Origin: Planctomycetota bacterium
GTDB lineage: Bacteria; Planctomycetota; Phycisphaerae; Phycisphaerales; Phycisphaeraceae
NCBI GenBank assembly: GCA_016350165.1
Contig: CP066225.1
Span: 2,418,001 to 2,482,000, forward strand
DNA length: 64,000 nucleotides
Reading direction: 5' to 3'
How positions within the stretch are numbered: position 1 is the stretch's first letter; every line of letters begins with the position of its first letter. Positions 3,004 through 37,715 of the stretch are shown here, in pieces. A program made the position numbers and the translations under genes. The notes under the pieces are model-generated. The model was not told the origin of the DNA and ran no database searches. It saw only the letters and a list, made by a program, of their open reading frames with translations.

Positions 3004-3509
3004 AACGCAGCCCTTCCGTCCTTGAAAACGACTGGCTGGCTCCGGCTTACACGCCCCTCTTCAAGCCTGGACCCAAACTGCAACCTTGCAGTTTCTTGAG
3101 CGTCATCTGACGATCTTTTGAGCACATAAATGTGAGCATCTCTCATCACACGCACAAAACTACATCACGCATGCAACAACAGGATCACTCAAACAAAAAC
3201 TGGAACATCCAGTCTCCATTCTGGTTATCGGGACAAATCCAAAAAAAACCTTAAAAGTTAATGAAGAAAAGCAGTTTTCTTATTTCCGCATTCCCTATCT
3301 TACCTCTCACCCCCCTCATTCTCGCCCCTTCACCTCCTTCAACAACCTCCCCATATCGGACATCAATAAATGAACCAAGTTCATCACTCTCGCTCTCCCC
3401 TCATCCAAATCTAGATCTTTCGTCCCTCAATGACCCGTCCAGCCTTCTACAAGGGCCCAAACAATTATTGATTAGCCTCACCACCCCCAAGCGCATTACA
3501 ATTCTGTCT
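3004..3509. other. 506-bp divergent intergenic region
   Basis: Apart from the palindrome at 3075-3094, this holds a small CGTCA-TC-TGACG repeat (3101-3112). The stretch 3261-3509 can be read in frame with the maf gene, but it is rich in Pro, Ser and Leu and lacks family resemblance. I read it as untranslated upstream DNA. Confidence 0.5.
3075..3094. promoter_or_regulatory. 20-bp palindrome upstream of the ParA-fusion gene
   Basis: AAACTGCAACCTTGCAGTTT is a perfect 9-bp inverted repeat with a 2-base centre, 72 bases before the GTG start. It has no T tract on either strand, so an operator is more likely than a terminator. Confidence 0.4.
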
Positions 3510-18831: not shown

Positions 18832-19440
18832 TTAACCGAAGTAGGCGGGTTCGTTGCCGGTTTTCCATTTAATGTTGCAACCCATTGATGGTTTCTGTTC
18901 TGCGCTGACGGGCTGGTTGTTGAGTACGGCTTCGAGCGCGTTGCGGAGGTCGGTGCCGGTGGGTTGGCTATCGTGTGAGTAGACGCCTGACTCGATACGT
19001 GTTGGTCGGGTGTCATCGAGTTGGCCACGATAGACGAGTTTACGGTTTTGGTCGTAAAGGAAGAAGTCTGGTGTGCATGCGGCGGTGTATGCTTTTGCAA
19101 CAGATTGATCTGAGTCGAAGAGATATGGGAAGGTGTAGCCACGTGCTTCGGCTTCGGCCTTCATGTGTTCCGGGGAATCATCTGGGTGTGATTCGGTGTC
19201 ATTTGAGTTGATGGCGAAAACGGCGATGCCTTTGTCCATGTATTCTTTGCCGAGGGCGGTGAGCTGGTCAGCGACATGTTTGACGTATGGGCAATGGTTA
19301 CAGATGAACATGATGAGGTAGCCGTGTACGTCGTCGCCGAATTCGTCGAGTGAGACGGGATCGCCTGAGACGACGTCGATGATTTCGAAGTCAGGGGCGA
19401 TGGAGCCGAGGGATTGCATGGTGGAAGGCGTCAATGCCAT
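18832..19440 (-). CDS. Thioredoxin-fold protein (AhpC/TSA-like redoxin)
   Basis: 202 residues from the ATG at 19440, which has AGGAG eight bases upstream; a TTG at 19482 would be longer but lacks a site. GSIAPDFEIIDVVSGDPVSL begins a redoxin domain, ICNHCPYVKHV carries the Cys-x-x-Cys active site (CNHC), and CTPDFFLYDQNRKLVYRGQLDD contains the cis-Pro and the Arg-Gly-Gln of the PRX-like1 subgroup. It has no signal peptide, so it is cytoplasmic. This group is common in planctomycetes and is presumed to be a thiol peroxidase or disulfide reductase; its substrate is unknown. In contrast to the secreted thioredoxin-like proteins at 25-36 kb, both cysteines are present. Confidence 0.85.
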   Translation of the reverse strand: MALTPSTMQSLGSIAPDFEIIDVVSGDPVSLDEFGDDVHGYLIMFICNHCPYVKHVADQLTALGKEYMDKGIAVFAINSNDTESHPDDSPEHMKAEAEARGYTFPYLFDSDQSVAKAYTAACTPDFFLYDQNRKLVYRGQLDDTRPTRIESGVYSHDSQPTGTDLRNALEAVLNNQPVSAEQKPSMGCNIKWKTGNEPAYFG

Positions 19441-19636
19441 GAGGTCATCTCCTAGTTTGTAGAACCACCTGTGGAACCGCAATGAGGTGGGAATTGTGTC
19501 GCATTGCGTGAGAAGGTCACGCAGTAGTCATTTGATTCCCAATCATAGCGAACAGATCGGAGAAGACGTGGTGATGATGTGATTTTTTGATGAATAAAGG
19601 CAGAAAAAGGTGTGAATGGGGGGTGTGGGGAAGGAG

Positions 19637-24577: not shown

Positions 24578-25021
24578 ATGCCTGTTGTTTCAGATCAAAA
24601 ATTGGTGATTGAAAGAGTGTATCAAGCTCCACCTCGTGTGGTGTTTGATGCCTGGATGAAACCGGAGTTACGGAAGCAGTGGTTTACGCCGAAGCCGGGG
24701 CTGGTAAGTTGTACAGAATGTGTCATTGATGCGCGAGTTGGTGGTGAGTATGAAATCACATTAGATGTTGGTGAAGGAAAGCAAGCGGTATTGCGCGGGA
24801 AATTTCTTGATATTGAAGAAGGGAAAAAGATTGTGTTTACATCCAAGGCATGTGTTGAGCCAGCGGATGCGGAGCCTTCAACTTGTACTGTTGAATTTAA
24901 GCAGATTGCAGAGGGGACGCATATGACATTTACTCAAGTTGGGTTCTACAGTGAAGAAACCAAACGAGATCAGCGTGAGGGTTGGAACGGATGTTTTGAT
25001 GAGCTGAAGAAGTTGTATTGA
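24578..25021 (+). CDS. SRPBCC (AHSA1-like) domain protein
   Basis: 147 residues; AAGGA lies eight bases upstream. LVIERVYQAPPRVVFDAWMK is the standard AHSA1 opening, followed by LRKQWFTPKPGLV, DARVGGEYEI, GKFLDIEEGKKIVFTS and the closing EGWNGCFDELKK. The fold forms a hydrophobic cavity for lipids or other small ligands. It lies 66 bases after the ArsR gene and is paralogous to the next gene. The ligand is unknown. Confidence 0.88.
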   Translation: MPVVSDQKLVIERVYQAPPRVVFDAWMKPELRKQWFTPKPGLVSCTECVIDARVGGEYEITLDVGEGKQAVLRGKFLDIEEGKKIVFTSKACVEPADAEPSTCTVEFKQIAEGTHMTFTQVGFYSEETKRDQREGWNGCFDELKKLY

Positions 25022-25092
25022 GTAAAAGTACTTGAAATATAGTCATAAACGTGATTAGATTGTTTTGGTGATTCACGGTGAAAGGAGATGTT

Positions 25093-25554
25093 ATGACGAC
25101 GACGAATGAGGCTTATTCATTGGAGATCAAACGGACGTTTCATGCGATGCCGCGGCAAGTTTATCAGGCATGGATTGATCCGAAAATGCGTTTGCAATGG
25201 TCTGTGCCGTGTCATGAGAAGATGACGTGTACAGCTTGCAGTATTGATCCACGTATCGGGGGACAGTATGCGGTGACGATGCATAATGATGAGAATGGTG
25301 AGGATTATATAGCGGTGGGAGAGTTTAAGGAGATGATTGAAGATAAGAAGTTGGTGTTTACGTGGTCATGGAAAGATCGACTGAATCTTGCGCAAGATAC
25401 TTTGTGTACGATTGAATTGAAGTTGTCGGAAGATGGCAAGCAAACGCATATGGTGTTTACACATGTTGGGTTCCCAGATGAGTCATCACACGATGATCAC
25501 ATGAAGGGTTGGAATGGTTGCTTGAGCTCGCTTGATTATTTCCTGAACAAGTAA
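25093..25554 (+). CDS. SRPBCC (AHSA1-like) domain protein, paralog
   Basis: 153 residues from the ATG at 25093, which has AAAGGAG five bases upstream; a GTG at 25078 would be earlier but lies in front of that site. LEIKRTFHAMPRQVYQAWID, IDPRIGGQYAV, GEFKEMIEDKKLVFTWSWKD and MKGWNGCLSSLDYFL mirror the preceding protein block by block. Two such proteins behind one ArsR regulator suggest gene duplication inside the operon. Confidence 0.88.
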   Translation: MTTTNEAYSLEIKRTFHAMPRQVYQAWIDPKMRLQWSVPCHEKMTCTACSIDPRIGGQYAVTMHNDENGEDYIAVGEFKEMIEDKKLVFTWSWKDRLNLAQDTLCTIELKLSEDGKQTHMVFTHVGFPDESSHDDHMKGWNGCLSSLDYFLNK

Positions 25555-25610: not shown

Positions 25611-26087
25611 TTATTGATTGGTGAGATAGTGTTTGACGGTATCGTAGATTTCGTTGTCACGGAGATTGACGGCGATGATGTTGCCTTGGGGGTTGATGAG
25701 GAAGATGGCGGGGATGCCTCGGGTTTTGTAGGCCGGGCGGACTGTGTCGTATTCCCATTGGCCGAGATAGGCTTGCGGATAGGTGATGTTGTTTTCACGA
25801 TTGAAAGTGATTGCGTCGTTGGGATTGTTGTCGAGTGAGAGTGCGATGATCGTGAAGTTGGGATCGTGTTTGAATGCGTTCCATGTTTTTTGGACGTAGG
25901 GTGTTTGGTCGCGACAAAGTTTTGAGGTGGAAGCCCAGAAGAAGAGCAGGACATATTGGCCGCGATGATCGGAGAGGGTGAAAGGTTTGTTTTTTTGATT
26001 GAGGCTTTGTGCGGTGAAGTCGGGAGCGCGCTGGGAGCAGCCGAGGATAGAGAAAAGGAGGAGTGTTGTGATGAGTAGGCGTTTCAT
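25611..26087 (-). CDS. TlpA/redoxin-like lipoprotein with degenerate active site
   Basis: 158 residues. A short basic start and LLITTLLLFSILGC form a lipoprotein signal (lipobox SILGC, Cys 17). The thioredoxin fold follows: RAPDFTAQSLNQKNKPFTLS, HRGQYVLLFFWASTSKLC, IIALSLDNNPNDA and RGIPAIFLINPQGNI with the cis-Pro. The canonical W-C-x-x-C is replaced by T-S-K-L-C, so only the second cysteine remains. It is the smallest of four related secreted proteins between 25.6 and 36.1 kb. The lost nucleophilic Cys argues against ordinary disulfide reduction. Confidence 0.82.
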   Translation of the reverse strand: MKRLLITTLLLFSILGCSQRAPDFTAQSLNQKNKPFTLSDHRGQYVLLFFWASTSKLCRDQTPYVQKTWNAFKHDPNFTIIALSLDNNPNDAITFNRENNITYPQAYLGQWEYDTVRPAYKTRGIPAIFLINPQGNIIAVNLRDNEIYDTVKHYLTNQ

Positions 26088-26182
26088 AGTTTGTGATTAT
26101 AGATAAGATGTATTTAAAATCATCATGCTTTGCCTTATGATTTTAGCAATATAGCAAATGTAAGACTGAAAAGGTTATTTCC

Positions 26183-26611
26183 ATGGGCAAATATGATTAC
26201 GTAAAGCAAATCGAAGAACAGTATGGAGAGGACGCGATATTCTGCTCGCAGTGTAAGTATTCATTGGTCAATTTAGAAGAGAATATATGTCCAAAGTGTA
26301 AGAAACCATTTGATCCAAAAGACTACGCAACGTATTTCAAAGCAAAAGATATTACGCAAGCAGATATCCATTGGGTACCTTTGGCGGCTTTTGTTATCAA
26401 TTTAGCAATTCTGATTCTGATTTTGTCTTCCGATGAATCGATAAATTATACGGTCGGCTTGATATTGTCTCCTGTAGGAATTGCGCTTGGTTTTGTATCA
26501 AAAAAGCTGAATCTATGTGATAACAGGTATGCAGTAATTTCAATCTGGCTTTCTTCCATAATAATGACTTGCTGTGCTCTTTCGTGTATTTGTGACGCGT
26601 TTTATGTATGA
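26183..26611 (+). CDS. Zinc-ribbon membrane protein, small
   Basis: 142 residues. FCSQCKYSLVNLEENICPKC (20-39) is a zinc ribbon of the CxxCxYxL...CPxC type also seen in the two large membrane proteins at 9.9 and 61 kb. Three hydrophobic segments follow (about 65-81, 88-104 and 118-138). The last segment contains several cysteines. Function unknown. It shares a bidirectional terminator with lpdA. Confidence 0.7.
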   Translation: MGKYDYVKQIEEQYGEDAIFCSQCKYSLVNLEENICPKCKKPFDPKDYATYFKAKDITQADIHWVPLAAFVINLAILILILSSDESINYTVGLILSPVGIALGFVSKKLNLCDNRYAVISIWLSSIIMTCCALSCICDAFYV

Positions 26612-26624
26612 TTGACGTGAAATT

Positions 26625-26656
26625 AAAAACCCACGTACCGAGATACGTGGGTTTTG
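26625..26656. terminator. Bidirectional terminator
   Basis: AAAACCCACGTA / TACGTGGGTTTT is a perfect 12-bp stem with a 6-nt loop and flanking A and T runs, between a + strand gene and lpdA. Confidence 0.85.
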
Positions 26657-26670
26657 TTTTTTTGTATGTA

Positions 26671-26685
26671 CTAATCGTTGATTAG
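26671..26685. repeat. Perfect copy of the dispersed CTAATC-N3-GATTAG palindrome
   Basis: CTAATC-GTT-GATTAG overlaps the lpdA stop codon. Confidence 0.6.
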
Positions 26686-28175
26686 AAGTTGAGCATGCGG
26701 TTGTTAATGCCTAGGGCTGACTCATGGACCGCTTCACTGAGGGTTGGGTGAGCGTGCATAGTTGCGACGATTTCGTCTGCGGTTGCTTCGAGTGTGATTG
26801 CGAGGCCCATTTCAGCGATCATTTCTGTTACGCCTTCGCCAACCATGTGAGCACCGAGAACTTCTTCATGTTCAGCGCCAACGATGAGCTTGATGAAGCC
26901 TTGGGTTTCGTTGAGCGCTTGTGCTTTGCCGGAAGCCATGAATGGGAACTGGGCTGTTTTATAGGCAATATCGTTTTCTTTGCAGTATTGCTCGGTGAAA
27001 CCGACAGAAGCGATTTGAGGTTGGCAGTATGTGCAGCCTGGGATCGCGTTGTAGTTTACGTCTGGAGCAGCGTGCCCGAACATTCTTTCGATTGCGAGGA
27101 CAGCTTCTTCGGATGCAACGTGAGCAAGCCACGGAGGGCCGATGACGTCGCCGATGGCGTAGATACCGGGGACGGTCGTTTCGTAAGTTGCACCGGGGAG
27201 TTTGTAATCGGTGGCTGTTTTGATGTGGCCACGATCGATTTCAATACCGAGTGATGGATCGAAAAGACCGTCGTAGCGACCTTGTACGCCAATCGCGACG
27301 AGAACTTTATCTGCTTCAATTTCCTGTGTTTTTGAATCATCGCCGACAGCACTCACTTGCGCTTTAATGCCTTTGTCTGTTTTTTCAACTGACTTGACGA
27401 TGTTCTTGGTGAGGATTTTGATGCCTAGCTTTTTGTAAGCGCGAAGCATTGCTTTGGAGACGTCCTGGTCTTCGACTGGGACGACCTTGTCGAGCATTTC
27501 GACGATGGTGACTTCGGTGCCATAGGCGTTGTAGACGTATGCGAACTCCATGCCGATCGCGCCGGAGCCGACGACGAGGAGTTTGTCTGGACGCTCATCG
27601 AGAAGCATGGCTTCTTTGGATGAGATGATTTTGTCGCCATCGAAAGGTGAACCGGGCATCGGACGTGGTGAAGCGCCGGTTGCGATGAGGACTTTTGAAG
27701 CTGTGAGCGTTGCTTTCGGCGCGTTCTTGAAGTTGAACTTTTCGGGTGCGTTGTCAGCTTTCTCGCCGGTTGGCTCAGCGTCTTCGAGAGCGTAAACCTG
27801 AACACTTCCGGGGGCGCTGATGAAGGCATGACCGTCGAAGTGATCGATCTTGTTCTTCTTCATGAGCATGCCGACACCACTGTTGAGGTTGCCAGCGACT
27901 TTGCGTGAGCGAGCGATGACCTGAGGCCAATCGAATTTTATGTTATCAGCGGAGATGCCGAATTCAGCCGCTTCGTGGTTGAGTTTGTGATAGAACTCAG
28001 CACCGGCGAGGAGTGCTTTGGTTGGGATACAGCCCCAGTTGAGGCATGTGCCGCCGAGCTTGTCGCGTTCGACGATAGCAACTTTCTTACCAAGCTGGGC
28101 TGCTCTGATAGCGCCGACGTATCCGCCGGGCCCGCCGCCGATGACGATCAGGTCGTATGACTTTGTTTCTGACAT
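26682..28175 (-). CDS. lpdA: Dihydrolipoyl dehydrogenase (E3)
   Basis: 497 residues; GGGAAG precedes the ATG. It re-oxidises dihydrolipoamide in the pyruvate and 2-oxoglutarate dehydrogenase complexes and the glycine cleavage system, passing electrons to NAD through FAD. FAD-binding GGGPGG (13-18) and the redox pair in GGTCLNWGCIPTKALL (Cys 44 and Cys 49) are intact. The NAD site reads VVGSGAIGMEF, a second FAD contact GIYAIGDVIG, and the catalytic His-Glu dyad HPTLSEAVHE is near the C-terminus. An insert of roughly 25 residues (about 125-150, acidic and Ala/Pro rich) separates the first FAD half. E1 and E2 genes are not in the window. Confidence 0.95.
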   Translation of the reverse strand: MSETKSYDLIVIGGGPGGYVGAIRAAQLGKKVAIVERDKLGGTCLNWGCIPTKALLAGAEFYHKLNHEAAEFGISADNIKFDWPQVIARSRKVAGNLNSGVGMLMKKNKIDHFDGHAFISAPGSVQVYALEDAEPTGEKADNAPEKFNFKNAPKATLTASKVLIATGASPRPMPGSPFDGDKIISSKEAMLLDERPDKLLVVGSGAIGMEFAYVYNAYGTEVTIVEMLDKVVPVEDQDVSKAMLRAYKKLGIKILTKNIVKSVEKTDKGIKAQVSAVGDDSKTQEIEADKVLVAIGVQGRYDGLFDPSLGIEIDRGHIKTATDYKLPGATYETTVPGIYAIGDVIGPPWLAHVASEEAVLAIERMFGHAAPDVNYNAIPGCTYCQPQIASVGFTEQYCKENDIAYKTAQFPFMASGKAQALNETQGFIKLIVGAEHEEVLGAHMVGEGVTEMIAEMGLAITLEATADEIVATMHAHPTLSEAVHESALGINNRMLNF

Positions 28176-28202
28176 ATTGATTCTTCCCGTGTTTCTCTTG
28201 AT

Positions 28203-28225
28203 CTACATATATGGTCTATATGTAG
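28203..28225. promoter_or_regulatory. Inverted repeat in the lpdA upstream region
   Basis: CTACATATA-TGGTC-TATATGTAG is a perfect 9-bp dyad 28 bases before the lpdA start. It could be an operator or a 5' UTR hairpin. Confidence 0.4.
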
Positions 28226-28410
28226 TTATCGAATCAGGGGCGCATTCTAGCGGATTTATTGGGGTGGTTCCTGTTAGCAGATGTTTTATTCTGCTAAATG
28301 GGATGACAGTTTTGGCTAAAGGGATGGCATGGGATTTAAGCGTCTGAGCGGGGTTTTTATGATCGTGGAAGAGTGGTGGGGAAATAGGTGAGTTGGGCAG
28401 GGTGGCGCAT

Positions 28411-28449
28411 AAAAAATGGTGGTCGGCATGAAGAGGGACGCCGACCACA
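28411..28449 (-). terminator. Terminator in front of lpdA, end of a candidate ncRNA or leader
   Basis: On the - strand GTGGTCGGC pairs with GCCGACCAC and is followed by ATTTTTT. No protein gene ends near it on this strand, so it either closes a small RNA or acts as an attenuator about 235 bases before lpdA. Confidence 0.7.
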
Positions 28450-28595
28450 CATGCATAGAAGAGAAAGAAGTTCGTAAGCAGATTGCGTGTGGAGCGACAA
28501 CCTGCTGATGATTTTGGTTGATGCCATCCGATTCAATTTGATGGCTGTAGGCGAGAAGCTCAGCAATCCGGAATCTTGCCTGCTTTCATATATAT
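28411..28595 (-). ncRNA. Candidate structured RNA (or riboswitch-like leader) upstream of lpdA
   Basis: Read on the - strand, four hairpins follow each other: GCAGGCAAGA with TCTCGCCTAC (some mismatch), GCCATC with GATGGC, CAACC with GGTTG, and the terminator above. TATATATATG just upstream could be a -10 region. No reading frame fits. It matches no RNA family I can name; 6S, SRP RNA, RNase P and tmRNA signatures are absent. Confidence 0.45.
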
Positions 28596-28694
28596 AGACA
28601 AAGCGAAGAAAGAATCTTGCATCATTCTGTGAATAATTTCGAGTTTTTTTCACCCAAAACCAATCGATGCTATAACTCGTGCATTTAGAGCAGG

Positions 28695-30623
28695 TTATTT
28701 TTCTTTCATTTTTGCTTCTTCAATATATTGTTGCACGCGTGTGTAGAGTTCTTCACCTGTGAGATTCACTTCAAGCAAAACCCCGTCAGGCGAGATCAGG
28801 TAATTTGCTGGAATCTTGGAGACGCCAAACACATTTGATGCTGAAGGGTTCGCCCATGCATTCTTCCAGCCAATCACGTACTGCATGTTGTTCTGTTTTG
28901 CGTAATCCACCAGATCATTGATATCACGATCTGACGAGTGGCTTACGATCACAAAATTCTCGCCCTTTAGTTTGTCATAAACCTCGTTCAGCTTCGGTGT
29001 CAGTGCTCGGCAAGGACCGTATGATGTTCGCCAAAACTCAAGCAGCACAAACTTGCCTTTGTAATCCGACAGCTTCGCGAGCTTCATCTTGCTCAACTCT
29101 TCATACGTCTCAGGTTTCTGCGGATCGATCACATAGAAATGACAATCAGGAGCAGGCTGACCGATCACCGGCTTAGGTCCCTTTGTCGATCGGTTTCGAT
29201 ACACAGGCTGTAAGTAACACACGCCCAGATCGATCGTCTTCGCTTCCGCCACAACCGTGATTTGCTGACGGTATGAAGCGCTCGAAACATTCGTGATCGC
29301 TGTTTCGTTTCGTGGCAATGAAAAGTAGATATCTAACTCATACTCGCCCGGCTCGACATTGATCACATCAAACGAACCATCCTTCTCAATTTTGAATTCA
29401 TACTTCGGATAGTGTTTTTGTCTCTTACGCCATTCAGCTTCCCAGTACGCATACTTCTCTGTTTTTGTGAACTTGCGCAACCATATATTTTTCTCATCCA
29501 TCGTCATTGCTGCGTAATCGCTCGGATATGGATAAGGCGGCCTCGCTTTCTCATGTAGCGACTTCAAACTCGCATAACCCATATGGAATCGCCAATTATC
29601 TGGGATACCAACAAACATCGGATGCTGCACGCGACCTTTCACACGACTGTGACTGTTCGAAAATTCAACCTCGTTCATACCGGAATGAATCGTGACTGGA
29701 GCTTGAAACAGATAACGTTCATAAAACGCGCTCTCGCCGTTATAAGGCGTAAAACAAATCATCTGCCCCTTACCAGTCGTCGCATGTTTTATCTCAAAAT
29801 AGCCATTCTCGTCTGTTTTATGACTGGTATTACCAAACCCAATGATCACACCTTGCATTGATGCACCAGATACGTATTCAAAATCTGAATCCAGATCAAA
29901 ATTAACACTGTGATTCGCTAGCGGCTTCCCATCCATCATCAATCGGCCCTTAATGTGAGCCCAAGGCGTTAGCACAATCTCTTTAATCATGTCCGTCTTC
30001 ACCTGCTCAACATCAATAATCGCATACCCCTCTTCATGCGTTACCAGCACGCCAAAGATCTTATTAGGGTGGCTGAAAATAAATGAACCATCCTTCTTGG
30101 TATTCACTTCTTTACTTGAGCTACGTGAATTGAGCGAAACAAAAACTTGATCCCCAAAATCAACGCGTGTTACGATTGCTCCTTCAAGCGGCTTTTTATC
30201 TTTCGAAAACACCTTGCCAGTTACAATCTCACCTTTATCTAACTCAAACTTCAGGTCAAAATCTTTTTTCTCTGATGTAAAAGTATCCGACTTGCTCGGC
30301 TTATACCCAATTGCCTCCGCAATAATGAACATCTTCGCCTTAGCTTGTTCACAAACGATGATGTACTTGTCGCCATCTTTGCGCAACCGCTCATCTGATA
30401 TCCCAAACGTATGGATATCATCCGCATGATGTGGGTTGATCCAGCCTAAAATAAATGTGGCATTCTCAATCCGCTCACCCGTCGCTTTATCAAACACCTC
30501 AGCTGTAATCGTATGCTTCGGCTTCTCTTTTGGCTTTTCAGCTTCTTCATCTTGTGCATTCAAATTCAGCGCACACAACAACATCAACACGACCAATATC
30601 GTCAGTTTCAAACAAGTCTTCAT
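28695..30623 (-). CDS. Secreted protein with carboxypeptidase-regulatory-like repeats and C-terminal thioredoxin fold (degenerate site)
   Basis: 642 residues from the ATG at 30623 (AGAGG six bases upstream); a TTG at 30638 is less likely. A signal peptide ends near NLNAQ. Several beta-sandwich repeats of the carboxypeptidase-regulatory type follow: HTITAEVFDKATGERIENAT, VTGKVFSKDKKPLEGAIV with KKDGSFIFS, and AHIKGRLMMDGKPLANHSV. The last 170 residues are TlpA-like: IGQPAPDCHFY, GKFVLLEFWRTSYGPC, IPANYLISPDG with the cis-Pro. The active site is Y-G-P-C, so the first catalytic Cys is a Tyr. It is the third of three tandem paralogs on this strand. A role in envelope or polysaccharide binding with a redox-like module is inference only. 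Confidence 0.8.
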   Translation of the reverse strand: MKTCLKLTILVVLMLLCALNLNAQDEEAEKPKEKPKHTITAEVFDKATGERIENATFILGWINPHHADDIHTFGISDERLRKDGDKYIIVCEQAKAKMFIIAEAIGYKPSKSDTFTSEKKDFDLKFELDKGEIVTGKVFSKDKKPLEGAIVTRVDFGDQVFVSLNSRSSSKEVNTKKDGSFIFSHPNKIFGVLVTHEEGYAIIDVEQVKTDMIKEIVLTPWAHIKGRLMMDGKPLANHSVNFDLDSDFEYVSGASMQGVIIGFGNTSHKTDENGYFEIKHATTGKGQMICFTPYNGESAFYERYLFQAPVTIHSGMNEVEFSNSHSRVKGRVQHPMFVGIPDNWRFHMGYASLKSLHEKARPPYPYPSDYAAMTMDEKNIWLRKFTKTEKYAYWEAEWRKRQKHYPKYEFKIEKDGSFDVINVEPGEYELDIYFSLPRNETAITNVSSASYRQQITVVAEAKTIDLGVCYLQPVYRNRSTKGPKPVIGQPAPDCHFYVIDPQKPETYEELSKMKLAKLSDYKGKFVLLEFWRTSYGPCRALTPKLNEVYDKLKGENFVIVSHSSDRDINDLVDYAKQNNMQYVIGWKNAWANPSASNVFGVSKIPANYLISPDGVLLEVNLTGEELYTRVQQYIEEAKMKEK

Positions 30624-30701
30624 CGCATACCTCTTCAAGCAGCTACGACAAACAGCTCAATTGTCTTTGTTTATTTCAATACACAATACCGTACGACGCA
30701 A

Positions 30702-32501
30702 TCACTCCGCCTGCTCAACCTGAGCTTCGATTGTCTCATACATCGCTTTAATATGCAGATTCTTCGAAACGATATACCCGTTCGTGTCAATCAGCACATT
30801 GCTCGGCAACTCATCAATGCTGTACTCATCAGTCACCGTATCTTCAGCCCAGTCACCTAGATACCCATGCACAAACTGATTTTTGTTTTTCTTGTAGTAA
30901 TTCAAAGGCGCCGCCATATTGTCATCCAATGACAAACCAATCACGACCAAACCTTTATCCTTAAACGTTTCAAGCGCACGTGTCATTTCTTTGTGATGAT
31001 CCGCAACATCATCATTCCATGTCGCCCAGAAGTTCAAGAGAATATATTTGCCTTTATACTTAGACATTTTCTCTTCATTAGACTTCATGGGATTCTTCAG
31101 ATTCAATACTTTAAACGTAAACTCAGGCGCCATTGAGCCAAGCCCCAATTTCTTTGATGCAACATCTGGCTTAATAGGGTCAAGCACCACAACATTCGCA
31201 TCATCACCTTTCACTTCAAACTCTGAATTGAAATTAAAAAGCTGATGATTATCATTCTGATAATTACTGATATTCAGCACACTCATAACCGACAACTTAC
31301 CGGGATTAACGTTGTAAGCTGTAAATGTTCCATCGTCAGCCACATTTAGTGGATATCGCTTTTCCTCTTCTTCGCTGAACAGATAAGCGTTGTAATCCAT
31401 ATACGAACGATCAGACTTCTTAAACGGCTTCATATCGTAGTTCACAAACTGCCCAGCCACGATATATCCAGATAGATTGAAGTCTACAGGTGCAGACCCC
31501 GGCTTCACCTTCTCCGACATGATCTTTGTCGATTCATAATCGTACCGTGACACCTGCCCCTTATTCCACGACACCTTCAACTGCTGGTCAGGCACGAATG
31601 GGAATCTAAACTTTCCTTGCTGATCGGAAAACGTATTCGCTGCAAACTGAATGCGATTGTTAAACTCATTATCATCCTCAACCATATACCCCGACACGGT
31701 CACATGCTGGGCTGGTTTCGCTTGCCCCAAATGTGATGTCGAACCCGATATCTCTTTCCAAGGCTTCAACGTAAACTCAGTCCCACTATGAACATCCTTG
31801 TGATCAATCACCAAATACCCCTCAGGCGCGAGCGCAACCAACTTAAACGGTGGCCGTAATGCTGGCAACTCAAATCGCCCTTCTAAATCCGTCTTCAACG
31901 GCAAACGATCACCATACCCCGACTCAATCACAATCGGACCGAACACCTGAATACGATTTTGTGGCTGCACAATCTGCACACTCGCATTCCAAATCGGCTC
32001 ACCCGCTGACGACTTAATCACACCCGAACGATCCGGTGCAGGTTCAAGTTTCAAATCCCAGGTCACCGGCGATTTCGTCAACGCAATCCCCTCCTTCTCA
32101 ATCGGATAATACCCCGGCGCAATAATCCGAAGCGCCAACAACTGCTCAAGCTCTTCATCTGTCTGCACCATCCCCATGACCCCATCTCCAAACTGATAAA
32201 CCAGCTTGTATCCGTTGTCATCCTGCGTGACGCTATACATCCCACTCATGTATCCACTATCAAACCAACTCGTGTGAACACTATCTCTCCCCTTACCCGA
32301 TCGCCACGACTGCCCAAGCGTGAACGTTAAATTCGTCACAGGCTCACCAGTCTTCGCATCAATTGCCTTGCCCTGAATCACAATCGATTTTAGTTGTGGC
32401 TTCTTCTCCTCAACAACTTCATCTGCCCCAAACCCAGTACCAGCAATCAATAACCCAATTACAGCCATCACAAATGCGTTACGAATATAGCTCAGTTTCA
32501 T
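30702..32501 (-). CDS. Secreted protein with beta-sandwich repeats and cysteine-free thioredoxin fold
   Basis: 599 residues; CCGGAG precedes the ATG. Signal peptide AFVMAVIGLLIAGTGFGA. Regulatory-like repeats follow: VIQGKAIDAKTGEPVTNLTF, GVIKSSAGEPIWNASVQIV and GRFELPALRPPFKLVALA. The last 150 residues form a thioredoxin fold: LGSMAPEFTFKVLNLKNP, GKYILLNFWATWNDDVADHH, LVVIGLSLDDNMAAPLNYY and LPSNVLIDTNGYIV. Where W-C-x-x-C should be it reads W-N-D-D-V, so both catalytic cysteines are gone. Domain order matches its two neighbours. It cannot act as a thiol oxidoreductase; the fold may now serve binding. Confidence 0.82.
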   Translation of the reverse strand: MKLSYIRNAFVMAVIGLLIAGTGFGADEVVEEKKPQLKSIVIQGKAIDAKTGEPVTNLTFTLGQSWRSGKGRDSVHTSWFDSGYMSGMYSVTQDDNGYKLVYQFGDGVMGMVQTDEELEQLLALRIIAPGYYPIEKEGIALTKSPVTWDLKLEPAPDRSGVIKSSAGEPIWNASVQIVQPQNRIQVFGPIVIESGYGDRLPLKTDLEGRFELPALRPPFKLVALAPEGYLVIDHKDVHSGTEFTLKPWKEISGSTSHLGQAKPAQHVTVSGYMVEDDNEFNNRIQFAANTFSDQQGKFRFPFVPDQQLKVSWNKGQVSRYDYESTKIMSEKVKPGSAPVDFNLSGYIVAGQFVNYDMKPFKKSDRSYMDYNAYLFSEEEEKRYPLNVADDGTFTAYNVNPGKLSVMSVLNISNYQNDNHQLFNFNSEFEVKGDDANVVVLDPIKPDVASKKLGLGSMAPEFTFKVLNLKNPMKSNEEKMSKYKGKYILLNFWATWNDDVADHHKEMTRALETFKDKGLVVIGLSLDDNMAAPLNYYKKNKNQFVHGYLGDWAEDTVTDEYSIDELPSNVLIDTNGYIVSKNLHIKAMYETIEAQVEQAE

Positions 32502-32591
32502 CTATTTACTCCGGAAAAAATATGTGCGTACCGCGATGATACGTAAACCAGCCTAAACTGAAAAGGTTTCTTTCACATGACTTCAGCACAC

Positions 32592-32623
32592 AAAAAAAGC
32601 TGGCGTGATCTCACGCCAGCTTT
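32592..32623 (-). terminator. Terminator of the 1143-residue secreted protein gene
   Basis: AAAGCTGGCGTGA / TCACGCCAGCTTT is a perfect 13-bp stem followed by a T run on the - strand. Confidence 0.9.
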
Positions 32624-32709
32624 CATTAGAGTTGCACAAGAGTTTTTGAGGGTTTGAGTACGGTTAGCCATTACTAACCAAAACCAAAACAAACTTCCGT
32701 GCTAAAAAC

Positions 32710-35700
32710 TTATTTCTTCTCATATTGCTCCATTGCCTCCAGAATCATCCCCGTCATTTGCCGTCCCGTCACATTCTTCGCAACAATTTTTCCATCCGGA
32801 TCAATCAACACAATCTCAGGCAATCTGTTCACGTTATACGCTTCAGCAATCGGATGATCCCATCGATCAATCACGCCATGAACACTCTTCAGCTCATGCC
32901 GCTTCACATAATCCTTCACCTCATCAAGCTTCTCATCAACCGTCAGTTGAATCACAGCCAAATGCTCATCTGAAATCTTCTCCATCGCTGCCTTGATATT
33001 CGGCGTTTCAGCAATACAAGGCCCGCACCACTTCGCCCAAAAGTCAACAAGCACAAACTTGCCGCGATAATCTGACAACTTCACTGTCTTACTACGATCA
33101 AACAAATTCTGCGCTTCAAAATCAGGAGCAACTTCACCAACCTGCAATACCTTCACATCCTTGATCTTAAACTCACCAAGATCAATCTTGTCTTTACTTT
33201 CAGCAGATATCACAACCTCATCAAACACTTCGCCAACTCGCCTGAGCTTCCCATCTTCCTCTCTTGTATAAAACCAACCCTTCAGCACATACTCCCCCGG
33301 CTCAAGATCATAAACCTCAAACTGGCCATCCTCTTTCAGAAATACTTCGATATCCCAACGGTCCGTCCCCGCTTTCGCCATACGTAACGACGATCCGTAC
33401 AGCAACCATACTTCAAGGTTCGGCGACAACTCAGGATGTGTCAGCTTGCCAACAACCTTATCCCCCTCTTGCTTGATAACAAACTCGTTCACGCCCGGCT
33501 GCAAATCAACTTCACGCTCAAGCAACGTAATCAAACGATTATCACCATCCTGCAAATGCGGATACACAACCATCTTCCCACGACTCGCAGGCACATACCT
33601 GAAATCAAACTTCCCGTCAGCATTCGTCACAATCAACTGATTAAAACCAACACTCGTATTCTTACCTGTCGTCGCATCACGATCTTCATAATCCGATTCA
33701 AAGTCAAAACTGATCGCATATTGCTGAGCTTGATCGCCCTCAATCTGAACTTGCCCCTTCACCTGCGCCCAAGGCTGCAATTCAATCACATCCATCGCAT
33801 CGCCATGTGTATCCTCAAGCTTCACAATCGCCCAACCCTGTTGAGCATACACATACAACGCAAATTCATGCTCAGGATCTGTCATCAAAAATTGACCCTC
33901 TGCATCAGTCTTACCCATCGGCAAACTGTTCGAATACGATCCCACCGGATTCAACATCCCCCATCTTCGCCCCTTATCCACACGCAACACTGACGCACCA
34001 GCAACACCATTCCCATTCGCATCAACAACTTTACCTGTTATCGCAATCGCCTTCTCAAGCGCTACAACAATCTCAACTACACCATCATTTCGCTCAATTA
34101 CTTCCGACTCATAAACCTTATACCCCGGCGATTCAATCCTCACCGCCTGCTTATCCTTCGCATGAGGCCAAACAAGCTTTACTCGGTTCCCATCAACCTC
34201 CGCACGCTTTGTATATCGCCAGTGAAGCTTATCACGATGATTGTATCCATAACCTTCAGCAATCCTAAAGTCCTTCAACGGCTCGCCCGTTTCCTTATCA
34301 ACCACATGCGCAACAAACGTCAGCGGGCCTTTCAATTCAAATACGTAAGGCGACTTTCCAGGCTTAATAATAGGCGAAATCCGTGTCAGCCCTTCTGCCT
34401 TAATACCAACATGGTACAAATCACCCTCAGCCAAATTCGGCATCATAAACTGGCCCATCGCATCAGTTTTCGTACGCTGCAATAACCTGCCAACATAATT
34501 ACTACCTGATCGACTTCTCACACCTTCCCCATACTTCGCCCACATATACAACGTGACCTTCGCCCCCTCCAACGGCTTCCCATCCGGACCAAGTACCGTA
34601 CCATACCAAGGTGTCGGCTCACCCAACTCAATATCATGAGGCTCACTCAACAACTCCTCGACACGCTTATCATTCAAATCCAAATGTGCAGCAGCAGCAT
34701 CTGGATGCGAGAAATTCAAAATCTTCTCATTATTACCAACGTAATCAATCCGCGCTAACTTATACTTCCCATCCTTATCCGTATGCGTTCTCGGATACCA
34801 AGGACATCCACCGCTATACATCGAAACCAGTGCACCCTCCAACGGCTGCCCATCAACACCATAAACCGTCCCATACATATACGGCTTCGGATCAAGCTCA
34901 TATGAGATCGAATGACCCAACATAATCTCATCAATACCGAATGTCATCACCGGCTCATACGGCAAATTCTTATTGTTGTTGTAAACATCACTACCACCGG
35001 TCTCAGGCGTATCATAAAAATCATGATACAAATAAACATCAACATCCTTCACGTACTCAATCGGCAAAGGAAACGCGAGATCAATATGATCCGGCTCAAT
35101 CACTGCTGTTAAATAGAACCAATCCGTCTGCATTACATAAGGCAGCTTCGGCAAATCATCTTTGTAATTCACCTTAAAACGCACCGACACATTCGGAATT
35201 TCTTCCTTCGTCTCACTATCAAACGCATTAAACATAACCCATTCTTCACGCAACATCTTCACTAACTTCACAGATTTATCATACGTAATGCCTTCCAATT
35301 CCATGATATGCGACGCATCCGCAATACGAGCTGTCACATAACCATATGCATCAATCGTCAGCGGATGCTTCGACTTCGCACTCACACCAAAATCATAAGG
35401 CACGACCGTTGCAACACCATTCTCATCCGTTCTTGCATACTGCGCAAAATTCTCCAACGCCTCATCAACCGTCACCTTCGCACCCTCAATCGGCACACCC
35501 TTCGAATCAACAACCTTCACCTCAATCGGCTCACCCAACTTATACTCAGGGATCGGGAACGAAGCGCCCTGTTCTTCAGTCGCAGGACTCAATGACAACT
35601 CAAAAATCTCAAACTCACCCGGCGACTGAGCACTGTTCAGCACACCCACCACCAACATGTCAATAAACCCATCATCACGAATCTCACGTAAATCTTTCGT

Positions 35701-36141
35701 CAGCGTATGGATCTCACCATCACCCTCAATATCCTTCAGCTCAAAGATGTAAAAACCCTTCTTATAATCCTTCTCCAGCAAATTGTTCCCATACAACGAC
35801 CAGATCGACGACTCCGCAGGTGAATTCGAGCGATACTTCAGCGTCAAAATCGGATACTGATTGATATCCACCACACGGCCCAAAGGCATTTCCCAAGCAA
35901 CACGCGCCCCTGTCTCATTCACACGGAACAAAACGCTATCAACAGAATTCTGCACCTCATGCGCTTCGGTATACGCAGGCTGCGCTCTCGCTGGCGCAAC
36001 ATTCCATTTCGCCATCTGATTGATATAAATTTTCAGCTCAGGCGGCGTACGATCCAACGCAAATTCCTCTGGCCCAACACAACACGCTGACAATAATATC
36101 GCCATCACCAACAACATCATCTCTGAGATAAATCGTTTCAT
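32710..36141 (-). CDS. Large lipoprotein with carboxypeptidase-regulatory repeats and intact TlpA-like thioredoxin domain
   Basis: 1143 residues from the ATG at 36141, with GGGAAG upstream; an earlier start adds 13 residues in front of a good lipoprotein signal (MMLLVMAILLSAC). Many beta-sandwich repeats are visible, for example KVVDSKGVPIEGAKVTV, GTVYGVDGQPLEGALVSMY, GTVLGPDGKPLEGAKVTLY and GKVVDANGNGVAGASVLRV, each followed by a D-x-x-G-x-F/Y motif. The C-terminus is a full TlpA-like domain: VGEVAPDFEAQNLFDRSK, GKFVLVDFWAKWCGPCIAET, LPEIVLIDPDGKIV. This is the only one of the four related proteins with the complete WCGPC motif. It is probably anchored in the outer membrane facing the periplasm (inference). 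A terminator follows. Confidence 0.85.
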   Translation of the reverse strand: MKRFISEMMLLVMAILLSACCVGPEEFALDRTPPELKIYINQMAKWNVAPARAQPAYTEAHEVQNSVDSVLFRVNETGARVAWEMPLGRVVDINQYPILTLKYRSNSPAESSIWSLYGNNLLEKDYKKGFYIFELKDIEGDGEIHTLTKDLREIRDDGFIDMLVVGVLNSAQSPGEFEIFELSLSPATEEQGASFPIPEYKLGEPIEVKVVDSKGVPIEGAKVTVDEALENFAQYARTDENGVATVVPYDFGVSAKSKHPLTIDAYGYVTARIADASHIMELEGITYDKSVKLVKMLREEWVMFNAFDSETKEEIPNVSVRFKVNYKDDLPKLPYVMQTDWFYLTAVIEPDHIDLAFPLPIEYVKDVDVYLYHDFYDTPETGGSDVYNNNKNLPYEPVMTFGIDEIMLGHSISYELDPKPYMYGTVYGVDGQPLEGALVSMYSGGCPWYPRTHTDKDGKYKLARIDYVGNNEKILNFSHPDAAAAHLDLNDKRVEELLSEPHDIELGEPTPWYGTVLGPDGKPLEGAKVTLYMWAKYGEGVRSRSGSNYVGRLLQRTKTDAMGQFMMPNLAEGDLYHVGIKAEGLTRISPIIKPGKSPYVFELKGPLTFVAHVVDKETGEPLKDFRIAEGYGYNHRDKLHWRYTKRAEVDGNRVKLVWPHAKDKQAVRIESPGYKVYESEVIERNDGVVEIVVALEKAIAITGKVVDANGNGVAGASVLRVDKGRRWGMLNPVGSYSNSLPMGKTDAEGQFLMTDPEHEFALYVYAQQGWAIVKLEDTHGDAMDVIELQPWAQVKGQVQIEGDQAQQYAISFDFESDYEDRDATTGKNTSVGFNQLIVTNADGKFDFRYVPASRGKMVVYPHLQDGDNRLITLLEREVDLQPGVNEFVIKQEGDKVVGKLTHPELSPNLEVWLLYGSSLRMAKAGTDRWDIEVFLKEDGQFEVYDLEPGEYVLKGWFYTREEDGKLRRVGEVFDEVVISAESKDKIDLGEFKIKDVKVLQVGEVAPDFEAQNLFDRSKTVKLSDYRGKFVLVDFWAKWCGPCIAETPNIKAAMEKISDEHLAVIQLTVDEKLDEVKDYVKRHELKSVHGVIDRWDHPIAEAYNVNRLPEIVLIDPDGKIVAKNVTGRQMTGMILEAMEQYEKK

Positions 36142-36356
36142 TCTGCTCTTCCCGTCATTGCGGCACACGCAAACACCCATCTCTCTATATATAGATGCTG
36201 CTGTACCAACCTCTGTGCGTTTAGTTTTCAGTGGAACAAAACCGCTAGTTTTAGCAGTCTCTACTTAAAAGACGCATCCTTTTTTCCCCTGTTGCATCAA
36301 CTCTCAAAAAAAAGCCCATCCCAGCCAATTTTCTCACCCAATCTCATATTCATACA

Positions 36357-36407: not shown

Positions 36408-37715
36408 TCACGCCCTTCTACGTCTGCTCATCATTCCCAACGCAGACAGCATCATCAACCCCAATGTCGCCGGCTCAGGTATCGCCTCTGACAACACTCC
36501 TAATTGATAAAACTGTGCATTGTCATCCAAACCACTCACACGAAGGAAGTAATCACCCGCTGCCAATGTCGTCAGCAGTTCCTCACCAGCGCCAACTGCA
36601 GCATCATCAATCGCCGTGATCACACTACCACTATTATCCAAAAGCTCCAACACCAAATCCGACAGTTCTCTCATATCCGTTGTATCCGTCGAACCACCAT
36701 CAAGCTCCTCCGACCAGTCATACTCATACCCTTCGGGGCTCAGCAAAACCAGTAGATCCGACTCGATATCCAAACTAAACGAATAAACATCAACATCTGT
36801 CTCATCGTCAATCGTTACAAAATCAACATCTGTGCCAAAGATCTCACCACCAGTAGCCAGATCCGCATCTCCACCAATTGACCACACTGCACCACTAGTC
36901 AGCGTACCAATCGCCTGTGCATTCGCGATATCATTGTTACCCATACCCGACTCATAAAAATCACCATAAAGCCTTTGGACCATCAAAATATCTTCAAGCT
37001 GTGGTCCATAAAAACTTGTATTAATAAACGGCTCCATCAACTGCCGCGTATCATCACTCTCCAAGTGTGGCAATCCCAACCCATGACCAATCTCATGCGT
37101 CAAAATGTTAATCAAAAACTTACTGCCCGAATCCGTCACAGGATCATACAAACCCCACGAACTCGAATTCGCAACATCAATCAGCATATCACCATTATCA
37201 GGAAAGTAATTGTACGCAAGCGTATTTGAACCCGAATTACCATCGATGTTCATGCCCGCAATACGCATATCACCACGAACACCCAACGCGCCATCTAAAC
37301 TAAACTGCCCGTGCTTCGTGCCATCATCTTCTGATTCATAATGGAACGTCAAGCCTGATAAATCACCCCAACGACCATACGCAATCTCAAACAGTCCAAA
37401 CCAAGGCCTTAACGTCAGATCACCTCCACCCGGACCCGACCCAAACTTACCATCAAGTTCTGCAATCAATGAACTTTCAAACGGTGGAATCGTGTCATCA
37501 ATATCTGTCGCCGTACCATCAGGCACAATCGACCATGTCAATATCGAAGGCAAACCAACCGAACTAGACGTTCCCGTATCACCAGGAGACGCAGTCCGAC
37601 TACCACGCCAGTGATCTAAACCGTCGAATATATCATTCGCAGCATAGACCGACTGAACACTTAAAAACGATGTCACTGTGATTGCACCAAAAGCGCAGAC
37701 GAAATGTTTTCGCAT
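36408..37715 (-). CDS. Secreted metzincin (matrixin-like) metalloprotease with PEP-CTERM signal
   Basis: 435 residues; GGAGAGA precedes the ATG. Signal peptide to about residue 26 (SVYAA). The zinc-binding HEIGHGLGLPH (207-217) has the three-His metzincin pattern, and LMEP near 227 is the Met-turn. The preceding region has a matrixin-like layout (LTLRPWFGLFEIAYGRWGD, RIAGMNIDG). After residue 260 comes a pre-peptidase C-terminal-like beta domain (VDVYSFSLDIESDLLVLLS, AGDYFLRVSG). The end PEPATLGLMMLSALGMMSRR is a PEP-CTERM sorting signal, cut by an exosortase not encoded here. It is probably a surface or matrix protease. Confidence 0.88.
   Translation of the reverse strand: MRKHFVCAFGAITVTSFLSVQSVYAANDIFDGLDHWRGSRTASPGDTGTSSSVGLPSILTWSIVPDGTATDIDDTIPPFESSLIAELDGKFGSGPGGGDLTLRPWFGLFEIAYGRWGDLSGLTFHYESEDDGTKHGQFSLDGALGVRGDMRIAGMNIDGNSGSNTLAYNYFPDNGDMLIDVANSSSWGLYDPVTDSGSKFLINILTHEIGHGLGLPHLESDDTRQLMEPFINTSFYGPQLEDILMVQRLYGDFYESGMGNNDIANAQAIGTLTSGAVWSIGGDADLATGGEIFGTDVDFVTIDDETDVDVYSFSLDIESDLLVLLSPEGYEYDWSEELDGGSTDTTDMRELSDLVLELLDNSGSVITAIDDAAVGAGEELLTTLAAGDYFLRVSGLDDNAQFYQLGVLSEAIPEPATLGLMMLSALGMMSRRRRA

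What the first reader, a model, noticed from the sequence alone, without database searches (positions are those of the whole stretch)
25611..36141. Series of secreted thioredoxin-fold proteins with decaying active sites
Four related proteins keep the fold and the cis-Pro, but the active site reads W-C-G-P-C (32710), S-Y-G-P-C (28695), T-S-K-L-C (25611) and W-N-D-D-V (30702). Three also carry carboxypeptidase-regulatory repeats. This suggests duplication with one working enzyme and three members turned to binding or another role.
Basis: partly seen in the sequence, partly recalled or inferred. Interest (0 to 1): 0.55.

Follow-up and report, generated by a model that had tools for sequence, protein, structure and literature searches.

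The report
Thioredoxin-fold relatives without catalytic cysteines
A marine planctomycete carries a cluster of exported thioredoxin-like proteins of which only one keeps the two cysteines needed for disulfide chemistry; the changed sites arose several times, and some persist between species, so those copies probably bind partners instead of doing redox work.

Summary
Four minus-strand genes encode TlpA/ResA-type thioredoxin-fold proteins: 32710-36141 (WCGPC), 30702-32501 (WNDDV), 28695-30638 (SYGPC), 25611-26087 (TSKLC). All four keep the cis-Pro.

The genome is Poriferisphaera heterotrophicis ZRK32, identified by its exact length. In P. corsica the locus is syntenic. The active protein and the small lipoprotein have orthologues there, and the small one reads DSHLC, so its first cysteine was lost before the species split. 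The WNDDV and SYGPC genes are absent there. Trees reject one clade of the three long proteins and reject a single origin of the dead sites. In the longer alignment P0002 is nearest a second pseudo-thioredoxin (YSGFM) whose P. corsica orthologue reads FNGFA.

ZRK32 is unusual: 11 of 20 TlpA-like domains read lack CxxC, against 16 of 109 in the other family genomes sampled. P0002 has no cysteine at all in 599 residues. Dead domains often sit beside, or in the same chain as, active ones; in one relative a dead domain ends an M56 receptor.

Best reading: exported pseudo-oxidoreductases kept as binding heads, three of the four proteins on beta-sandwich stalks. Relaxed selection in an anaerobe is the main rival and fits one locus well. 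A new variant of a known kind.

The parts
32710..36141 (-). P0001: lipoprotein-like N-terminus, stalk of carboxypeptidase-regulatory-like beta-sandwich repeats, C-terminal TlpA/ResA domain with intact W-C-G-P-C (codons 33016-33030) and cis-Pro
   Evidence: P. corsica orthologue L078:5391-8984, 42% identity
30702..32501 (-). P0002: Sec-type signal, beta-sandwich stalk, C-terminal TlpA domain reading W-N-D-D-V (codons 31005-31019); no cysteine anywhere in 599 residues
   Evidence: absent from the syntenic place in P. corsica
28695..30638 (-). P0003: Sec-type signal, beta-sandwich stalk, C-terminal TlpA domain reading S-Y-G-P-C (codons 29010-29024); second cysteine kept. An in-frame ATG at 30623 may be the true start
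   Evidence: absent from the syntenic place in P. corsica
25611..26087 (-). P0004: small lipoprotein-like TlpA domain reading T-S-K-L-C (codons 25914-25928); its only cysteines are the lipobox one and the second active-site one
   Evidence: P. corsica orthologue L078:11101-11748 reads D-S-H-L-C
26682..28175 (-). lpdA-like dihydrolipoyl dehydrogenase between P0003 and P0004 (name by recall, from its sequence); conserved neighbour, 85% identical in P. corsica
32595..32624 (-). terminator-like hairpin (13 pairs) with T run between P0001 and P0002, suggesting separate transcription of P0001; pattern match only, and such matches in the region are no more than chance (12 found, 10.5 expected)
36408..37715 (-). 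secreted metalloprotease-like PEP-CTERM protein upstream (name by recall, from its sequence); marks the conserved synteny

Best explanation
The four genes belong to a family of exported thioredoxin-like proteins, most with a beta-sandwich stalk (three of the four here), that is expanded in this species. P0001 is probably a working membrane-anchored thiol-disulfide oxidoreductase. P0002, P0003 and P0004 are pseudo-oxidoreductases. They keep the TlpA fold and the cis-Pro loop that in active members contacts clients, but they have lost the attacking cysteine, and in P0002 both cysteines. I think they are maintained as binding heads, meaning partner recognition, holding or sensing of the same kind of extracytoplasmic client, much as the non-catalytic b/b' domains work beside the catalytic domains of eukaryotic PDI. 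Shown: fold by sequence and (for P0002) by model, the missing cysteines, several separate origins, persistence across two species for P0004 and for two further dead paralogues, and frequent pairing with active domains. Inferred: export, redox activity of P0001, and binding by the others.
For: P0002 has no cysteine; the P0004 orthologue lacks the first cysteine too. The paralogue pair L043/L079 (YSGFM/FNGFA) is 52% identical over 594 codons, against 42% for the intact P0001 pair; in the Trx-only tree its two end branches sum to 0.56, against 1.65 for P0001. cis-Pro is kept in 21 of 27 degenerate domains of the family set and in 10 of 11 in ZRK32. Outside ZRK32, 11 of 21 loci with two or more TlpA domains hold a degenerate one, against 4 of 70 single-domain loci (biased, see evidence against). 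In G035 a dead TlpA domain (YNPAA) ends an M56 receptor; its sister in the stalk-plus-head tree, G014, has the same fusion with WCGPC. Two Verrucomicrobia-group proteins (L183, L195) alternate active, dead, active, dead, active TlpA domains. The P0002 model keeps the ResA fold, 10-residue pLDDT blocks 79-97 in that domain, matching 3fw2, 4grf and 2h1g, the ResA variant with both active-site cysteines replaced. The b' domain of PDI binds substrates (PMC7794689, passages read).
Against: No binding partner, expression or redox data were seen. The dead site is not specially conserved in the P0004 pair (10 of 21 site residues identical, 52 of 106 in the rest of the domain) nor significantly so in L043/L079 (16 of 21 against 69 of 110); only L042b/L080b leans that way (p=0.042). 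Synonymous sites are saturated for many pairs, so dN/dS says little. P0002 and P0003 have no orthologue, so constraint on them rests only on open frames. P0002's grouping with L043/L079 comes from the stalk-plus-head tree, where the program warns of long branches; the Trx-only tree leaves P0002 and P0003 unplaced. A terminator-like hairpin lies between P0001 and P0002, but the scan found no more such sites than chance (12 against 10.5). The cis-Pro is lost as well in six degenerate domains (L043, L079, both G035 proteins, L152, L065). The tandem statistic is biased: partners were found by looking near hits of an intact query, and flanks were about 1.2 kb for most loci. At least one Trx hit (G010:C176) was not fetched.
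Confidence: 0.5

Rival explanations
1. Relaxed selection. ZRK32 is a strict anaerobe with little need for exported disulfide chemistry; an expanded paralogue family is drifting, and the dead sites are stages of decay without a new role.
For: ZRK32 has 11 of 20 domains without CxxC against 16 of 109 in the other family genomes sampled; at a uniform score cut of 40 bits, 9 of 17 against 7 of 103 (p=1.6e-5). One locus reads NSELC here and WCPPC in P. corsica, with only 29% identity. ZRK32 is strictly anaerobic and P. corsica aerobic (PMC10945688, passages read). The buried acid before the site is also lost more often in degenerate domains: D/E in 8 of 27 against 90 of 102.
Against: P. corsica, an aerobe, itself has 3 of 6 domains degenerate, and all three are orthologues of dead ZRK32 members. 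All four window frames are open over 158-1156 codons. The L043/L079 domain is better conserved than the active P0001 domain.
Confidence: 0.28
2. Single-thiol chemistry. P0003 (YxxC) and P0004 (SxxC) use the remaining second cysteine for mixed disulfides, metal binding or client trapping; only P0002 is fully inert.
For: Of the 11 ZRK32 degenerate domains, 5 keep the second cysteine alone, 1 the first alone and 5 neither. Ser-x-Leu-Cys is shared by P0004 and its orthologue. P0003 has further cysteines at 96, 295, 474 and 499.
Against: In thioredoxins the first cysteine attacks and the second is buried (established knowledge). In a metagenomic thioredoxin the variant lacking the attacking cysteine had no insulin-reduction activity (PMC7949104, passage read). 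The buried acid is Phe in both P0004 orthologues.
Confidence: 0.15
3. Assembly or annotation error: the missing cysteines are sequencing errors or recoded codons.
For: Recoding at this very position probably occurs in relatives: five genomes read W-TGA-GPC and all five have a selA match.
Against: The window sites use ordinary sense codons, differ at several positions, two of the three lose the buried acid too (N, F), one is shared with a second species, and ZRK32 and P. corsica have no selA match.
Confidence: 0.02

Closest known systems
TlpA/ResA/DsbE-type extracytoplasmic thiol-disulfide oxidoreductases (Pfam AhpC-TSA/Redoxin; PDB 3fw2, 4grf, 2lja, ResA 1st9)
   Same: Fold, cis-Pro, export signals by eye; P0001 also CxxC and buried Asp
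   Different: P0002-P0004 lack the attacking cysteine; long beta-sandwich stalks in three of four; none reaches the NCBIfam ResA cut-off (91, 56, 54 and 61 bits against 170)
Protein disulfide isomerase with non-catalytic b/b' thioredoxin domains
   Same: Catalytic and non-catalytic thioredoxin-fold units side by side; b' binds substrates (PMC7794689, passages)
   Different: Here on separate chains; no sequence membership tested; bacterial envelope, not ER
QSOX1, an exported disulfide catalyst of animals with one active and one inactive thioredoxin domain
   Same: Active plus inactive thioredoxin fold (recalled; of PMC6295897 only the listing and the start of the abstract were seen)
   Different: Oxidase fusion, eukaryotic (recalled)
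BlaR1/M56 receptors with carboxypeptidase-regulatory and TlpA ectodomains in relatives G014 and G035
   Same: Same stalk plus TlpA module, dead in G035
   Different: Membrane M56 part absent from the window proteins; the three M56 hits in ZRK32 do not coincide with its TlpA hits

Membership tests
TlpA/ResA-type oxidoreductase | AhpC-TSA/Redoxin thioredoxin fold | tested here: met
   All four over the Pfam cut-offs; P0002 model matches ResA-type structures, TM by target 0.82-0.90 for the top three
TlpA/ResA-type oxidoreductase | CxxC dithiol | tested here: not met
   Met only by P0001; not by P0002, P0003, P0004
TlpA/ResA-type oxidoreductase | cis-Pro opposite the active site | tested here: met
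   Pro present in all four at the aligned position
TlpA/ResA-type oxidoreductase | Buried acid five residues before the pentapeptide | tested here: inconclusive
   P0001 Asp, P0003 Glu, P0002 Asn, P0004 Phe
TlpA/ResA-type oxidoreductase | NCBIfam ResA curated score | tested here: not met
   91, 56, 54 and 61 bits against 170
TlpA/ResA-type oxidoreductase | Export to the envelope | tested here: inconclusive
   Signal-like N-termini by eye only
TlpA/ResA-type oxidoreductase | Thiol-disulfide exchange activity | not testable with these tools
   needs biochemistry
PDI-like active/inactive thioredoxin pair | Active and inactive units on one chain | tested here: not met
   Separate genes in the window; one chain in L038 of ZRK32, L120, L148, L152 and in L183, L195 of the Verrucomicrobia group
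PDI-like active/inactive thioredoxin pair | Inactive unit binds clients | not testable with these tools
   needs binding assays

The most novel reading that the evidence does not exclude
Planctomycetes and their PVC relatives have repeatedly evolved a PDI-like division of labour outside the cell membrane: catalytic TlpA domains paired, in tandem genes or on one chain, with TlpA domains lacking the active-site cysteines that recognise clients or act as sensor heads, including on M56 receptors.
Probability: 0.3. Interest if true: 0.7.

Novelty: new variant of a known kind. Interest (0 to 1): 0.47.

Why it matters
If the dead copies bind clients, bacteria have built PDI-like catalytic and non-catalytic pairs many times from TlpA domains, which offers small testable models of how a redox fold becomes a binding module. 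The same residue is lost in some members and is probably selenocysteine in relatives, so this one family would span gain and loss of catalytic power. It also warns against annotating such genes as oxidoreductases.

Tried and rejected
Recent tandem duplication of P0001 as the source of both P0002 and P0003: rejected by the AU test for the three together (0.003), though P0001+P0003 as a pair is not rejected (0.31). Single origin of dead sites: rejected for the eight members tested. Long-branch effects were flagged by the tree program for P0002 with L043 and are not excluded; the Trx-only tree does not place P0002 or P0003.

Remnants of P0002/P0003 in the P. corsica gap before lpdA: only matches to the end of the P0001 orthologue, plus hits with E of 1.1 or more. 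Special conservation of the dead site: mostly not found. dN/dS: infinite dS for seven of the eleven gene pairs compared, so used only as dN and identity. Structure of full P0001: mean pLDDT 57.9; the C-terminal domain is confident, parts of residues 620-915 are fair, the N-terminal half is not usable. Selenocysteine in the window genes: excluded by sense codons and absence of a selA match. The N-terminal domain of P0001 stayed unidentified: no family has its best stretch within residues 44-210 (only best stretches are listed); the alignment failed and was not repeated. Promoter and terminator scans gave no more sites than shuffles (11 against 23.3, 12 against 10.5).

Literature: three searches combining carboxypeptidase regulatory domains with thioredoxin and Planctomycetes, with TlpA and thioredoxin, or with thiol-disulfide oxidoreductase returned no paper; the library is open-access only.

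Rows dropped: of 142 domain hits, 129 had readable motif and cis-Pro columns and were counted. The 13 dropped are three non-TlpA hits (window 18832-19482, L078:15750-16427, L087:2783-4768) and ten partial or TGA-split ones; four of the ten show an intact CxxC and are counted, which needs the motif only.
Full report
What is there. Four minus-strand genes encode thioredoxin-fold proteins of the TlpA/ResA type. P0001 (32710-36141; the longer ORF starts at 36180) reads WCGPC, P0002 (30702-32501) WNDDV, P0003 (28695-30638) SYGPC and P0004 (25611-26087) TSKLC. Pfam AhpC-TSA, Redoxin and Thioredoxin_8 exceed their cut-offs in all four; CarboxypepD_reg does so in P0001 and P0002 and is just below in P0003. 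P0002 and P0003 align to residues of about 620-1156 of P0001 at 25-26% identity. All four keep the cis-Pro. P0002 has no cysteine at all; P0004 has only its lipobox cysteine and the second active-site cysteine. The AlphaFold2 model of P0002 has a confident C-terminal domain (10-residue blocks from residue 451 at 79-97; mean for the whole protein 79.5) whose best PDB matches are Bacteroides and Chlorobium oxidoreductases and ResA, including ResA variants without one or both active-site cysteines. The model of P0001 is poor over most of its N-terminal half (mean 57.9).

Which organism. The window lies in a genome of 5,234,020 bases. That is the length given for Poriferisphaera heterotrophicis ZRK32, a strict anaerobe; the one other genome of the genus in the set has the length of P. 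corsica KS4 (4,291,168), described there as aerobic (PMC10945688, passages read; for the contig length).

Orthologues and synteny. In P. corsica the order GGDEF protein, metalloprotease, P0001, lpdA, P0004, SRPBCC, ArsR-type regulator, KefB-like is the same (gene names by recall from sequence). P0001 is 42% and P0004 49% identical. P0002 and P0003 are missing from the interval in P. corsica, no remnant was found there, and their hits elsewhere in that genome all belong to other genes of the family. Among 151 genomes of the order, no better P0004 match than the P. corsica one was found.

History. In a tree of 23 stalk-plus-head sequences, P0001 groups with its P. corsica orthologue (95/89) and P0002 with the pair L043/L079 (99/97). 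That pair is itself pseudo (YSGFM in ZRK32, FNGFA in P. corsica). The program warns that long branches meet there, and a Trx-only tree of 42 domains leaves P0002 and P0003 unplaced. AU tests reject one clade of the eight degenerate members tested (1e-40), of P0001+P0002+P0003 (0.003) and of P0002+P0003 (0.016), but not of P0001+P0003 (0.31) or of P0001, its orthologue and P0003 (0.40); at least five changes of state are needed. So the losses are separate, and the set as a whole is older than a fresh tandem duplication; a P0001-P0003 duplication remains possible.

How unusual. I read the sites of 129 TlpA-like domains from a sample of 51 family genomes, ZRK32 included: 102 intact, 27 degenerate. 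ZRK32 has 9 intact and 11 degenerate, P. corsica 3 and 3, the other genomes 90 and 13. ZRK32's domains came from two searches, the others mainly from one (with at least one Trx hit left unfetched) plus loci. With one score cut of 40 bits the counts are 8 and 9 in ZRK32 against 96 and 7 elsewhere, p=1.6e-5; cuts of 30, 35 and 45 give p from 5e-5 to 5e-6. Related domains are not independent. The acid that lies five residues before the pentapeptide is D/E in 90 of 102 intact and 8 of 27 degenerate domains; cis-Pro is kept in 102 of 102 and 21 of 27.

Pairing. Outside ZRK32, 21 loci hold two or more readable domains: 10 mixed, 10 all intact, 1 all degenerate. Single-domain loci are 66 intact and 4 degenerate (Fisher 6e-6, or 2e-4 with one set of four alike pairs counted once). 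This is biased, since partners were seen because they lie near hits. Dead and active domains share one chain in G017, G018, G020 and in ZRK32's own L038. In L183 (a Verrucomicrobia MAG) and L195 (an Opitutaceae MAG), five domains alternate active, dead, active, dead, active; a third, L229 (Opitutaceae), lacks the second of these (dead sites read by eye; five AhpC-TSA stretches in L183). G014 and G035 carry the stalk and TlpA domain fused to an M56 peptidase; the TlpA domain is WCGPC in the first and YNPAA in the second. ZRK32 has M56 proteins, but not at its TlpA loci.

Constraint. L043/L079 is better conserved (52%, dN 0.39) than the active P0001 pair (42%, dN 0.54); P0004 has dN 0.48, and the dead L042b/L080b pair (WNRGS/WHVGS) 0.60. 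A different locus shows a change in this species alone: NSELC here, WCPPC in P. corsica, 29% identity, dN 0.78. The dead sites themselves are not clearly more conserved than the rest of the domain. Thus some dead domains are kept, at least one member is drifting, and P0002 and P0003 cannot be judged.

Mechanism. P0001 is the likely redox enzyme, lipid-anchored with a stalk. A terminator-like hairpin follows it, though such sites are no commoner in the region than in shuffles; P0002 and P0003 are 63 bases apart and may form their own transcript. I favour binding heads (0.5) over relaxed selection in an anaerobe (0.28) and single-thiol chemistry (0.15). The binding step is inferred by analogy with the b' domain of PDI (PMC7794689, passages read), not shown.

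Novelty. Thioredoxin folds without CxxC are known, and PMC7949104 names calsequestrin (passage read). I found no paper on this stalked combination in three searches of an open-access library. It is a new variant of a known kind.

Noticed in passing
L117 (G019), L158 (G020), L272 (G058), L273 (G070), L274 (G054): TlpA-like genes read W-TGA-G-P-C in frame, a likely selenocysteine in place of the attacking cysteine; all five genomes have selA over its cut-off, while ZRK32, P. corsica and G017 have no match. A sixth genome with a TGA inside the match, G062, was not examined. No SECIS element was looked for.
   Followed up: partly
L183:5872-8901, L195:445-3570, L229:5434-8319 (Verrucomicrobia and Opitutaceae records): Polyproteins with alternating active TlpA domains and TlpA domains whose site has no cysteine; a Pro at the cis-Pro place is seen in both dead domains of L183 (one by alignment, one by eye).
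   Followed up: partly
L090:3508-8115 (G014), L082:798-6020 (G035): M56 (BlaR1-type) peptidase fused to carboxypeptidase-regulatory repeats and a TlpA domain; in L090 a BlaI-like gene (by eye) lies just upstream, at 3116-3496.
   Followed up: partly
L136 (G022), L133 (G048), L155 (G049), L140 (G050): A W-G-G-P-P pseudo-TlpA domain beside a W-C-G-P-C one in four genomes of two genera (g15, g33), a second recurring dead/active pair.
   Followed up: no
window 26183-26611; L042:10647-12702: Small zinc-ribbon membrane-like protein between lpdA and P0004 in ZRK32, with no such ORF at that place in P. corsica; similar genes stand five in a row at another ZRK32 locus, and at least one is in P. corsica (L080:9516-9929) (by eye).
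   Followed up: no
window 24578-25021 and 25078-25554: Two adjacent SRPBCC-like genes after an ArsR-like regulator where P. corsica has one.
   Followed up: no
L038:5683-7982 (ZRK32): One chain with three TlpA domains reading CKYC, KRSYS and GFPYC (the last with only its final Cys) next to a second gene with CPDC.
   Followed up: no
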